A stretch of 64,000 nucleotides of DNA from contig CM040746.1 in the NCBI GenBank assembly GCA_022829145.1, forward strand, positions 4,310,731-4,374,730. The letters are read 5' to 3'. Position 1 is the first letter of the stretch, and every line of letters starts with the position of its first letter. The stretch comes from Albula goreensis. Its lineage: Eukaryota > Chordata > Actinopteri > Albuliformes > Albulidae. The notes beneath the pieces were generated by a model that saw only the letters and a program-made list of their open reading frames with translations, had not been told where the DNA came from and did not search any database. The translations under genes were made by a program, and so were the position numbers. Shown one piece after another: positions 45,225 through 49,716 of this stretch.

Positions 45225-48200
45225 TCAGTATCTGCTACGGGCGATGCCGCGATCGACCCGCCCGCTTCCTCTTCCGCCACCTCGGGGCGCCCCGCGGCTC
45301 GGGCCGCCATACGAGTCACGAGGAGGGTAGCCTCTCTCGATGGGCGGGGCGGGCCCCCTCTCCTGCCTGCTCATTCGCTCTCCGCGGCTAGCGGAGGAGG
45401 AGTACGGGTCGCTCCGGCTGCCGGGGTAACCGTCGCGGCTCCCGTAGCCATCCCGGGAGGAGCTGCTGCCATAGTCGTCATAGCGACTGCTTCCTCCACT
45501 CCCTCCGTAGGATGGAGGGGGGCCCCGCAAGGGTGGGGCGCTGCGGGAGTTACCTGCAGGGTCAATGGGGTCAGGTAATTGGCAAGGTCAAGACATTTGA
45601 ACTGCTTCCTGCATTCTCATGTGCCCATTTTCAAGCAGAAGCTAATATTTCAACTGTTTTCTCTTTTAAGTCTACAGAAAATCGTTTCACTGTCTCAATG
45701 CTTTTACAACCACTGAATCTAAAGTGATAACACATGGCACTGTATCCGAGTTTAAACGAACAGCTGTGATTGAGGGGTCAAAGCACAGAGACTACGCAGT
45801 AGCATGCCACTGCACCCTTGTGGGTCAAACTGCCTTTTCCTTTCAGTACTCCAAGCTGCTAGAGCTTCAGATTAGCCACTGGCCTTTTCACTTGGGTTTC
45901 TTGACGGTTTTGCGTTTGACTTATTTTTAGGGTGCGCATTTCCAGAAACGAGGGTTATGTGCAGGACTCCTTGTGGTAGCATATGAAGCTCTGTCGATTG
46001 AACATTGGCTCTGCGTTGACAGGTACTGGTTTTTGTGATGCCACTCCGACAACATTTTTGTGCACATTTTTTTTTTTGCTTTTGAGTTTGATTTCATTGG
46101 TCCCAAGCTCCCAGGATCACACTGCACGTTGGAGTGAAGCTACAGAGCATTTTAGTGTAAACCCTTGACATCGCAAAGAGGTTTGTTCTTACCGTAACCG
46201 TCGTAGGGGTCTCTGTAGGAGCCTGTGCTGGGGCGGTCCATGTAGCCACGCGGTTCACGGCTCCCGCCGTAGCTGTCACGTTCACTGGCAGAGGGGAGCA
46301 GAACATGTTACTGAAAGGCCTCAGGTGACGCACCACTCTGCTGTAACCTTGGGATACGCAGCCTACTTCATAGTGATGACTCCTCCCTTTTCTACCCTCA
46401 CGTTATTCAGCTAGGCGTGTCTACGCAATAGTGCTCACTCCTGGGCCAAGATGGCTGCAGTGTGCAACCCGAAATTCCAGCCAGCTAAAAAACTAGCATG
46501 AACTACAGGACCATGAATGAGGACTACTGGACGAAGGTGACGACCGGCTTAAACCGATGTGCTGCACATCTATTAGTCACCCTCTGCAAATCTGACTCAA
46601 TGTGTATGCTAGCGCATTTCTTCCATAACCATCACTGATACAGCAACTCCGGCAAAGGATAAACCCTCTCTAGAGCAGGGACTTCAAACTCCAGTAATGG
46701 GGGACTATAGAATGTAGAGTTGTGATTCTCTTCCAATTAATCAGTATAAGAAACAAGGTATGATAATCTGGGATTTTGCACCTGGGCTGAATCACTCAAA
46801 ACCAGAAGACACTGCTGTCTTCTAGAAGTTTCAAATCTGTGTTTTGGGGTCAGGAAACAGACATGCTATTTTGAGATTACTATCAACAAATTTTAGCAAG
46901 CTGTAAGGAAAGGAGGAGAAAGACTGATTCCTCACATCCAAATGGCAACAAAGTAAGGACAAGAGCCACTCTGGATGAAGCACTCCATGCATGCAAACTA
47001 CAACTATGACACCTGAAAAGTGCCAAAAAGAACCAAGCGTACCTGTAGCCACGTGACATGGACCCGTACTCATCGCGGGAACTGGAATGTGGGTATTCAC
47101 GATAGCTATATTCACGCGAGGGTGGCGCATAGTCTCTGCTGTCCCTGGAACTCAAGTAGTCCCGACTCGAATAGCTGGGGGAGAGCAGTTTGCATGACAT
47201 CACACCATTAAAATTGAACCCATTCATACAAAGTCCTTAAGACTGCATAAAATACTGCTTCCATTAAAAAAAAAAAACCCAGAAACAAATCTATGTTGTT
47301 TTGGTTTGACAACTCCAAATCATTGTTCATGCACAATTACTGATTTGTGAAATTCTGACATGGAACCTCCACACTTTGATCCTCCAAAATACATTTGTCA
47401 TGCATACCTGTCCTTTGTGCTGTAATGGTCATCCCTTGGTGAAGGGTAGTCATCTCTCCTGGAAAGCATGGTGTCTCTGCGGGGAGGTGGGGGACCGTAG
47501 GGGTCTCTCTCTCTGGACATGGGAGCTGGAAGAGACCAAATCCTGAGTATTAGTTAGGACAAGCTTCCTTTCCTCTGCTATCAGACTCCCGAAAAGGGAA
47601 ACAAGGGACGGTGCACAGAAGAGGGCTCTATTGTGGTCTGGATAAAGGCATCTACTTAAGGCCCAAATGCAACATGTACAGTTTAAAAACTGCTCGTCTT
47701 CGTAAGCTCAGAACTTCTTAGAGGACAAAAGCGGCAAAATCAGTTCACAATTGATCAATGCCATGTCGTCATCATAGCTTACACACAGACTTCTTTACTT
47801 CCTACTGAACAATTTTTCATTTTTTTATAGTGTTATGAATAAGTGTTTTCGTGAACACTATTAATGAAACGATGTGTGAAACGACACAAAGCTATTACTA
47901 TGCAATGCTATTATTTACAGTCTTTGGGATCCTTGCAGACACCACATTTATCAAAAGCCCAAAATATTTATTGAAATATTTTGACCTCCATGGCTAAATG
48001 GTGTGTCACATGAGCACCCTGGTTGGCCGACTGCAGTGAATGCGATGCTCATTTCCCCAAACTTCATGTGCGCTCGCGGTGCAAGCATAATATACTATAT
48101 TTACGTATGCATTCTTCATTCATGCATGACCAATCACACCATTAATCTATGCATGCGTCTCTAGCAGCAGTCTAAGTAACCCGTTTCCATTTCTTCTTGC

Positions 48201-49716
48201 TGCACTGACCCATCGAACTGCCATGGACAAAAAGACCAACATCTCGTATCATATGACACTAAGACCATGAGCCTCTCCTACTTACGTCTTCCCATTGGTC
48301 CGGACGGCACTGATCTCTTGGGCGGGGGTCCTCCATTGCGAATCGGGGGTCCCCTCTTCAGTGGAGGTGGACCTCTGGATGACATCCCCTTAAAAAAGGG
48401 ATCTACATCCCCTACATCACAACAGTTGCCACGTCAGCCAGCAAATCACACTGCAGCCATCATCCCAGCTGACAGCTGGTTAGCAGAGTAAGCTCAGAAC
48501 TTCTTAGAGGACAAGAGCGGCAAAATCAGTTCACAATTGATCAATGCCACGTCATCATCATAGCTTACACAAGGACTCGACCGCTAACTCTTTACAACTT
48601 CTACCTTAAAACACTAGAGAATTCTGAAATTATGTGCTAGTAGCACAGGTACTTGGGGAAGTGTCCCCGTTTACTCAGTAGCTCCAAACAGGATAGCCAC
48701 AAAATCTGATAAACGCAAGCACAAGGTAGATCAGAAAACGAACCTTTACTTGCAAAGTGCTCGCACCTTAACTGACATCAATTAAGGGCTTGATTATAAC
48801 CTCCCCCCCCCATACCTCTGCTTGGTGGGCCTCTCATGCTGCCCGGAGCTCCTCTAGATCCTCGGGGTCCTCTCGGGAGGCCGCGACTGTGCAGAGATGG
48901 CGGGCCGCGACGGCTGCCGGACTCAAACTGGGGTTTCGTGGCTTGCTCTACTTTGATTGGCTTACCATCAAGGGACTGGGGAGGAAGATTTTCTCCGTTA
49001 TCATTTGAAACCGTGGAAGGAGCAAACGCTACCGGTTAGCTGCAGAGGCCGGAGCGGCAAGCTCACCTTCCCATTCATTTCCCGCACTGCATCCTTTGCA
49101 TCTGCTGGGCTCTCAAACGTCACAAAAGCGAAGCCTCTTGACTTGTTCGTTTCTCGATCTTTCATCAACAGCACTTGGAAAACAAAGTTAAGCCAAGGTC
49201 AACTATGCAAAGGAGATGGAAAAAGTTCTAAGTTTGCACAAGAACCTATTTTTATTGGGATGTAGGGCACACACTAGTTTGTGAACAGCTTTGTGCGTAA
49301 CTTTTAACTGCTCACAAAGGGGTTTTGACAGTACACTAAACCCCAGCCATAAAGCTCTTAAAGATACCATCCTAATGCAAAACTGAGGGTTTGACGACCC
49401 CTCAAACTGATTCCTATGTCACATGCACTATGTAAACTTTACCGAGGGCTTTGTTCATGCCCGTTATGTTTCAGAACGATCTCAACGCTGCTCAAGATCG
49501 TACGATTTACGGTACTTGAGAACAAACCATTCAGTGAATAGCCACAAGCCAACTCCACTTCGTCACCTCCCTTATTCTCTACTGACCAAGTCATTTGCAA
49601 CCGTTACCTTCCACTATTCTGCCGTATTTGCCGAAATATTGCTCAAGGGCCTTCTCGTTAGTCTCGGTGTTGAGGCCACCGATGAACAGCTTTCCTGGTC
49701 GGTCTGCCTCGGCCAT
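45225..49716 (-). CDS. rbmx: RNA-binding motif protein X (hnRNP G), complete, 8 coding exons
   Basis: Nuclear RNA-binding protein that regulates splice-site choice and sister-chromatid cohesion (family knowledge). Coding exons on the minus strand: 49716-49608, 49173-49067, 48975-48816, 48411-48286, 47525-47408, 47174-47043, 46284-46193, 45553-45225. They join in phase to 1173 nt, 390 aa plus stop (human RBMX 391). The RRM occupies about residues 8-86, with RNP2 KLFIGGL (9-15) and RNP1 RGFAFVTF (49-56). The remainder is the Arg/Gly/Ser/Tyr-rich tail with [12 protein letters not shown], repeated SRD/RDY units, and a C-terminus ending [16 protein letters not shown]. The start follows a short 5' leader in the same exon (acceptor at about 49741). 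Two snoRNAs lie in its introns. Confidence 0.97.
47702..47782 (-). ncRNA. SNORD61: Box C/D snoRNA SNORD61-like, copy 2 (next rbmx intron)
   Basis: Minus strand, in the intron between the exons ending at 48286 and starting at 47525. Nearly identical to the copy at 48488-48568 over the whole snoRNA (about three differences in 81 nt), with the same terminal stem, C box ATGATGA (47775-47769), D box CTGA (47711-47708) and unchanged guide CTCTAAGAAGTT. Similarity stops at the stem on both sides, so only the snoRNA unit was duplicated. Its 3' end is about 176 nt upstream of the next exon, farther than usual, so expression may be weaker. Confidence 0.85.
48488..48568 (-). ncRNA. SNORD61: Box C/D snoRNA SNORD61-like, copy 1 (rbmx intron)
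   Basis: Minus strand, in the intron between the exons ending at 48816 and starting at 48411. Terminal stem GTAAGC (68-63 end) pairs with GCTTAC (93-88 end). C box ATGATGA is at 48561-48555 and D box CTGA at 48497-48494. The D-box guide CTCTAAGAAGTT is complementary to the 18S rRNA stretch AACUUCUUAGAG; the fifth base from the D box pairs with the second U, the SNORD61 target (human 18S U1442). The 3' end lies 77 nt before the next exon, the typical distance for intron-encoded box C/D snoRNAs. An internal CTGA may be a D' box. Confidence 0.88.

What the first reader, a model, noticed from the sequence alone, without database searches (positions are those of the whole stretch)
47702..48568. 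Two near-identical SNORD61-like snoRNAs in adjacent rbmx introns
Both copies keep the terminal stem, C box, D box and the 12-nt guide to 18S AACUUCUUAGAG, while the surrounding introns are unrelated. A snoRNA known as single in human RBMX therefore appears duplicated here as a discrete unit, intron to intron, with purifying selection on both copies. The spacing to the downstream exon differs (77 versus about 176 nt), so the copies may differ in output or one may be a recent spare.
Basis: partly seen in the sequence, partly recalled or inferred. Interest (0 to 1): 0.75.

Follow-up and report, generated by a model that had tools for sequence, protein, structure and literature searches.

The report
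Duplicated SNORD61 snoRNA in rbmx
Two nearly identical copies of a known small RNA that guides a chemical mark on ribosomal RNA sit in neighbouring introns of one gene; this is a real but ordinary kind of duplication for such RNAs.

Summary
Rfam's SNORD61 model (RF00270) gives the only two gathering-level matches in the 64 kb window, 47704-47778 and 48490-48564, minus strand (57.9 and 56.6 bits; threshold 43). They lie in consecutive rbmx introns (4 and 3 from the ATG exon). Both keep the 6-bp terminal stem, C and D boxes, and a 13-nt antisense element abutting the D box that pairs perfectly with a eukaryotic 18S stretch. The 83-nt units differ at 3 positions; intron sequence outside shows no similarity above shuffles. 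The next exon is 76 and 176 nt away.

"Duplicated as a discrete unit" is supported. "Purifying selection on both copies" is not shown: the variable filler is nearly as well kept (3 of 43 nt differ between copies, against 19-20 of 44 columns from the Rfam consensus), pointing to recent copying or gene conversion. Duplication of box C/D snoRNAs between introns of one host gene is a documented main route (PMC8178906, PMC2653536; passages). Verdict: a new cis-paralogue of a known family. Expression, and copy number elsewhere in this genome or in other fishes, could not be tested.

The parts
47702..47784 (-). SNORD61 copy A (unit including terminal stem; Rfam match 47704-47778), in rbmx intron 4
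   Evidence: Rfam RF00270 57.9 bits, gathering 43; unit limits from comparison with copy B
48488..48570 (-). SNORD61 copy B (unit including terminal stem; Rfam match 48490-48564), in rbmx intron 3
   Evidence: Rfam RF00270 56.6 bits, gathering 43; unit limits
47769..47775 (-). C box AUGAUGA, copy A
   Evidence: motif at position 10 of the unit
48555..48561 (-). C box AUGAUGA, copy B
   Evidence: motif at position 10 of the unit
47712..47724 (-). antisense element CCUCUAAGAAGUU to 18S rRNA, copy A
   Evidence: 13 Watson-Crick pairs to L001:24-36, inside the stretch 1-105 that Rfam names SSU_rRNA_eukarya
48498..48510 (-). antisense element CCUCUAAGAAGUU to 18S rRNA, copy B
   Evidence: as for copy A
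47708..47711 (-). D box CUGA, copy A
48494..48497 (-). D box CUGA, copy B
47777..47782 (-). 5' arm GUAAGC of the terminal stem, copy A
47702..47707 (-). 3' arm GCUUAC of the terminal stem, copy A
48563..48568 (-). 5' arm GUAAGC of the terminal stem, copy B
48488..48493 (-). 3' arm GCUUAC of the terminal stem, copy B
48816..48975 (-). rbmx exon 3, counted from the ATG exon
   Evidence: AG/GT borders and open frame after splicing
48286..48411 (-). rbmx exon 4, between the two snoRNA introns
   Evidence: AG/GT borders and open frame after splicing
47408..47525 (-). rbmx exon 5 (RBM1CTR domain)
   Evidence: Pfam PF08081 9.2e-19
47526..48285 (-). rbmx intron 4 (760 nt), host of copy A
48412..48815 (-). 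rbmx intron 3 (404 nt), host of copy B

Best explanation
Both loci are intronic box C/D snoRNA genes of the SNORD61 family. Each is probably released from an rbmx intron after splicing, trimmed to its terminal stem by exonucleases, packed with the C/D proteins, and used to guide 2'-O-methylation of the uridine of 18S rRNA that pairs with the fifth nucleotide upstream of the D box (human U1442 from recall; printed as 18S-U-1397 for chicken U61). One arose from the other by cis-duplication of a unit of about 83-90 nt between introns, relatively recently or kept alike by gene conversion. Shown: sequence, boxes, guide complementarity, intron placement, lack of flank similarity. Inferred: expression, processing, methylation, and the route and age of copying.
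For: Rfam matches at 57.9 and 56.6 bits over the full model 1-72, the only two in the window. C box, D box, 6-bp stem and 13-nt guide identical in both. The guide pairs with a stretch that Rfam scores as SSU_rRNA_eukarya (50.8 bits, just above its gathering score 50, E 1.1e-11). Folded alone, both units close the terminal stem: -19.7 (11 of 200 shuffles as good) and -21.5 kcal/mol (3 of 200). Flanks unrelated. Copies are far closer to each other (3 of 75 nt) than to the Rfam consensus (19 and 20 of 76 columns, insert and gap columns counted). Chicken U61 lies in an RBMX intron with a 12-nt 3' guide (PMC2653536, table passage). In human, C/D family members mostly share a host gene, ascribed to cis recombination (PMC8178906, abstract and passages).
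Against: No expression data. Folded with flanks, the naked terminal stem is not always favoured: with 25 nt each side A keeps it (mean pair probability 0.99) but B does not (0 of 6 pairs in the MFE, 0.17); at 50 nt A 0.98, B 0.45; at 75 nt neither (0.13 and 0.04). Copy A lies about 147 nt upstream of its likely branch point, B 53 nt (motif search); PMC10234308 (passages) quotes 40-50 nt as the classical requirement and finds expressed snoRNAs closer to the branch point than silent ones, though most expressed ones are at least 100 nt away and distance ranks 23rd as a predictor. No trace of the copying mechanism is visible.
Confidence: 0.85

Rival explanations
1. One copy is a spare or dying duplicate that makes little or no RNA, while the other does the work. 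By distance from the 3' splice site the spare would be A.
For: A is 176 nt from the exon and about 147 nt from the likely branch point; B is 76 nt and 53 nt. PMC10234308 (passages): expressed C/D snoRNAs within 100 nt of the branch point are more likely to target rRNA. With 3 of 83 differences there has been little time for a dead copy to decay.
Against: A has every box, the stem and the guide intact and scores slightly higher than B (57.9 against 56.6 bits). A's terminal stem holds better against 25-50 nt of flank than B's, which would speak against B instead. Stem arms with 20-nt flanks pair about equally (-13.9 and -14.5 kcal/mol).
Confidence: 0.25
2. Old duplication held alike by purifying selection on both copies.
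For: All 3 differences avoid boxes, guide and stem; flanks have diverged beyond recognition.
Against: Chance gives that placement with probability 0.19. The filler is nearly identical too, although it differs from the Rfam consensus at 19-20 of 44 columns, so selection on the known elements does not explain it.
Confidence: 0.2
3. Assembly artefact: one snoRNA placed twice.
For: None beyond the near-identity.
Against: Each copy has its own unrelated flanks and lies between different rbmx exons that splice in one frame; the copies differ at 3 positions. A false join would be expected to carry flanks.
Confidence: 0.02
4. Retroposed snoRNA copy, inserted by a reverse transcriptase.
For: The unit is discrete, ending at or near the snoRNA's terminal stem.
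Against: Within 30 nt of either side there is no poly(A) (longest A run 3 for A and 2 for B in the 3' flank) and no shared word beyond chance (4 and 3 nt; 483 and 500 of 500 shuffles reach these). C/D copies in one host are ascribed to cis recombination in human (PMC8178906), and PMC2653536 suggests that snoRNA retroposition may have originated in mammals (passages).
Confidence: 0.12

Closest known systems
SNORD61 (U61; Rfam RF00270) in human and chicken RBMX
   Same: Family by covariance model, host gene, C/D boxes, guide to the same 18S site.
   Different: Two copies in adjacent introns here. Chicken U61 (GGgCD26) carries a '1' in a column that I take to be copy number (header not seen) and one intron, RBMX intron 2 (PMC2653536).
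Box C/D snoRNAs with copies in different introns of one host gene (chicken GGgCD23 in EIF4G1 introns 11 and 14; GGgCD25/U32 in KPNB1 introns 4 and 7; PMC2653536 table passage)
   Same: Copies of one C/D snoRNA in different introns of one protein-coding gene.
   Different: Other snoRNA families and hosts; here the introns are consecutive. The likeness of those chicken copies was not examined.
SNORD87 copy-number variation (four genes each in Xenopus and zebrafish, two in chicken, one in human; PMC3349704 section 9)
   Same: More copies of a conserved C/D snoRNA in a non-mammal than in human.
   Different: Another family; its intron layout was not read.

Membership tests
SNORD61 (RF00270) | Score above the curated gathering threshold over the full model | tested here: met
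   57.9 and 56.6 bits against 43, positions 1-72 of 72
SNORD61 (RF00270) | Antisense element next to the D box for the SNORD61 site in 18S rRNA | tested here: met
   13 Watson-Crick pairs ending at the D box, target stretch scored as SSU_rRNA_eukarya. The window species' own 18S was not at hand
SNORD61 (RF00270) | Location in an RBMX intron | tested here: met
Box C/D snoRNA | C box and D box | tested here: met
   AUGAUGA and CUGA in both
Box C/D snoRNA | Terminal stem bringing C and D boxes together | tested here: met
   6 complementary pairs in both; closed when the unit is folded alone or with 10-nt flanks; with longer flanks competing folds win (B from 25 nt, A at 75 nt) in naked-RNA prediction
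Box C/D snoRNA | Stable small RNA bound by fibrillarin, NOP56, NOP58 and 15.5K | not testable with these tools
   needs small-RNA sequencing or immunoprecipitation
Cis-duplicated C/D paralogues | Two or more family members in different introns of one host gene | tested here: met
   introns 3 and 4 of rbmx
Retroposed snoRNA | Poly(A) tail and target-site duplication | tested here: not met
   neither seen within 30 nt of either side; old hallmarks can erode

The most novel reading that the evidence does not exclude
The two copies are a natural pair for position dependence: nearly the same snoRNA body in one pre-mRNA, one at about 53 nt and the other at about 147 nt from the likely branch point, so that one depends on spliceosome-coupled assembly and the other on its terminal stem (which, in naked folds, holds better against flanks in A), and the two are made at different rates or in different tissues. 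Two of the three differences lie 10 and 6 nt upstream of a D'-like UUGA (unit positions 17 and 21 against 27), so the copies could also differ in a second, still unknown target.
Probability: 0.12. Interest if true: 0.4.

Novelty: new member of a known kind. Interest (0 to 1): 0.2.

Why it matters
It adds one clean case of intron-to-intron copying of a box C/D snoRNA, and one with nearly matched bodies at different distances from the 3' splice site. That makes it a convenient locus to test how much position matters for processing. It does not change the picture of snoRNA evolution.

Tried and rejected
Whole-genome copy count: the same genome search (own genome, RF00270) was sent seven times and never answered, so copies outside the window are unknown.

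SNORD61 relatives elsewhere: the 20-nt guide-D-box pattern has 0 exact matches in viral contigs and 0 in genome contigs, collections of viruses and prokaryotes; so no fish comparison was possible.

External stems: the 40-nt outer flanks of A pair more stably than 481 of 500 shuffles and those of B than 371 of 500; I do not claim stems that make up for distance. The stem-arm control of the same call (12 and 41 of 500 shuffles as good) includes the shared 6-bp stem, so it says little about the flanks.

Weak Rfam hits: 6 of the 8 matches in 40000-56000 at E up to 10 (SOX2OT exon 1 at E 0.33, Afu_455, mir-1270, mir-3613, MEG8_3, Six3os1_3) are far below their gathering scores and were dropped. tRNA scan: none.

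Papers: SNORD61 alone (223 papers, 30 listed, 2 opened for passages: PMC3511168 and PMC6381762); SNORD61 with RBMX and intron (1, PMC6381762); snoRNA with teleost, host gene and others (10 listed, none opened); zebrafish with RiboMeth-seq (8 listed, PMC8393311 opened for passages, no mention of SNORD61 or U1442); snoRNA with retroposed and others (46 papers, 15 listed, 4 opened for passages or one section); RBMX with U61 and snoRNA (1, PMC2653536); SNORD61 with zebrafish (14 listed, none opened, no title about fish snoRNAs); snoRNA with teleost and gene conversion (1, not opened). What I saw holds no report of two SNORD61 copies in fish rbmx.

My first exon limits (and the list printed) were off by a few bases and were replaced by those; the intron comparison therefore included 1 and 3 exon bases. 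Searches count 44 alignment columns of filler; the copies themselves have 43 nt there.

Full report
What is there. Rfam's cmscan over all 64,000 bases reports two matches at or above gathering scores, both SNORD61 (RF00270): 47704-47778 minus, 57.9 bits, and 48490-48564 minus, 56.6 bits, each over the full model 1-72. The direct-repeat search finds the same pair as a 90-nt repeat at 94% identity, 786 nt apart. The tight unit, from two bases before the 5' stem arm to the end of the 3' stem arm, is 83 nt with 3 substitutions. The guide plus D box occurs twice in the window, both times exactly, and nowhere else with up to 3 mismatches; 100 shuffles gave 0.10 on average and never two.

Host and layout. 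The gene is rbmx: the window's RRM matches the PDB chain 'RNA-binding motif protein, X chromosome' at 4.3e-52, the RRM halves match Pfam RRM_1 and exon 5 matches RBM1CTR at 9.2e-19. Five exons joined across four GT-AG introns give one open frame; later exons were not spliced. Copy B (48488-48570) lies in intron 3 (404 nt), copy A (47702-47784) in intron 4 (760 nt), numbered from the ATG exon; an untranslated exon upstream was not sought. From the end of the terminal stem to the next exon is 76 nt for B and 176 nt for A.

Working parts. Both copies have C box AUGAUGA, D box CUGA, and stem arms GUAAGC/GCUUAC. Folded alone they close the stem (-19.7 and -21.5 kcal/mol; 11 and 3 of 200 shuffles fold as well). 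Directly upstream of the D box stands CCUCUAAGAAGUU, which makes 13 Watson-Crick pairs with AACUUCUUAGAGG at L001:24-36, inside a stretch (1-105) that Rfam scores as eukaryotic SSU rRNA at 50.8 bits, just over its gathering score of 50, E 1.1e-11. It was the only run of 9 or more pairs between either copy and the plus strand of that contig, which holds only that piece of rRNA. The base paired to the fifth nucleotide above the D box is a uridine. This fits the known SNORD61 site; the human number U1442 is recalled, and chicken U61 is printed as guiding 18S-U-1397 with a 12-nt 3' element from RBMX intron 2 (PMC2653536, passages).

Origin of the pair. Outside the unit the two introns show no similarity: best local score 17, reached by 195 of 200 base-shuffled pairs; the 60-nt flanks likewise (175 and 471 of 500 shuffles). 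Inside, A and B differ at 3 of 75 mature positions (11, 15, 50). Each differs from the Rfam consensus at 19 or 20 of 76 columns (insert and gap columns counted), all within the 44 columns between C box and guide. So filler that varies in the family is almost the same in both copies (3 of 43 nt). Selection on boxes and guide cannot account for that. Copying as a discrete unit not long ago, or gene conversion confined to the unit, can. If a longer stretch had been copied at the divergence seen in the filler (about 7%; 95% interval of 3/44 about 1.4 to 18.7%), the flanks should still align; they do not. The Rfam consensus is a rough yardstick, since no fish SNORD61 was at hand; constraint on the filler within fishes is not excluded.

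Selection. The claim of purifying selection on both copies is not established: the placement of 3 differences in variable columns has chance probability 0.19, and zero changes in the 32 constrained columns has probability 0.10 at the filler's rate.

Route. No poly(A) run and no target-site duplication were seen within 30 nt, which speaks against LINE-type retroposition, though old hallmarks erode. [quoted passage not shown] PMC2653536 (passages) reports that almost all chicken paralogues arose by intragenic duplication and that most of the novel ones (printed as ~18%) emerge in adjacent introns. PMC3349704 (section 9) reports a trend towards low C/D copy numbers in placental mammals, with SNORD87 at four genes in zebrafish and one in human. 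PMC3511168 (passages) places the SNORD61 clan in the last eukaryotic common ancestor. The present pair is what these papers lead one to expect.

Output. Branch-point-like motifs (yUnAy) between unit and exon: four for A (58, 120, 147 and 151 nt from the stem end) and two for B (7 and 53); by distance to the exon I take 147 or 151 for A and 53 for B. PMC10234308 (passages) quotes 40-50 nt as the classical optimum, says that a terminal stem often makes up for greater distance, and finds expressed snoRNAs closer to the branch point than silent ones and rRNA-targeting ones more often within 100 nt; but also that most expressed ones lie at least 100 nt away and that distance ranks 23rd among predictors. 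On the other side, naked-RNA folds with flanks favour A: with 25 nt each side the terminal stem has mean pair probability 0.99 in A and 0.17 in B, with 50 nt 0.98 and 0.45, with 75 nt 0.13 and 0.04. Stem arms with 20-nt flanks pair alike (-13.9 and -14.5 kcal/mol). Position favours B and stem folding favours A, so I no longer say which copy gives more; I expect both to be made.

What remains open. Copies elsewhere in this genome, the species, copy number in other fishes, and expression. The first could not be answered because the genome search never responded.

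Noticed in passing
20070-20999 minus: A reading frame with part of a RhoGEF domain (Pfam RhoGEF 9.8e-06, 26.3 bits, just under its cut-off 27.6) runs on into an in-frame tandem repeat ([18 protein letters not shown]). By recall ARHGEF6 neighbours RBMX in human, so this may be conserved synteny.
   Followed up: partly
61067-61597 plus: Part of an endomembrane protein 70 (TM9SF) gene, Pfam EMP70 5.1e-17.
   Followed up: partly
12329-13181: Long repeat open on both strands ([14 protein letters not shown] on minus, [14 protein letters not shown] on plus); looks like a satellite array rather than a gene.
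   Followed up: no
48552-48558 minus: In copy B one difference creates a second, overlapping AUGAUGA three bases after the C box; whether it affects C-box use is unknown.
   Followed up: no
L001:1-105: A contig of a record titled as a bacterial MAG begins with eukaryotic 18S rRNA (Rfam SSU_rRNA_eukarya) and carries a tRNA further on: probably a contaminated or chimaeric contig.
   Followed up: partly
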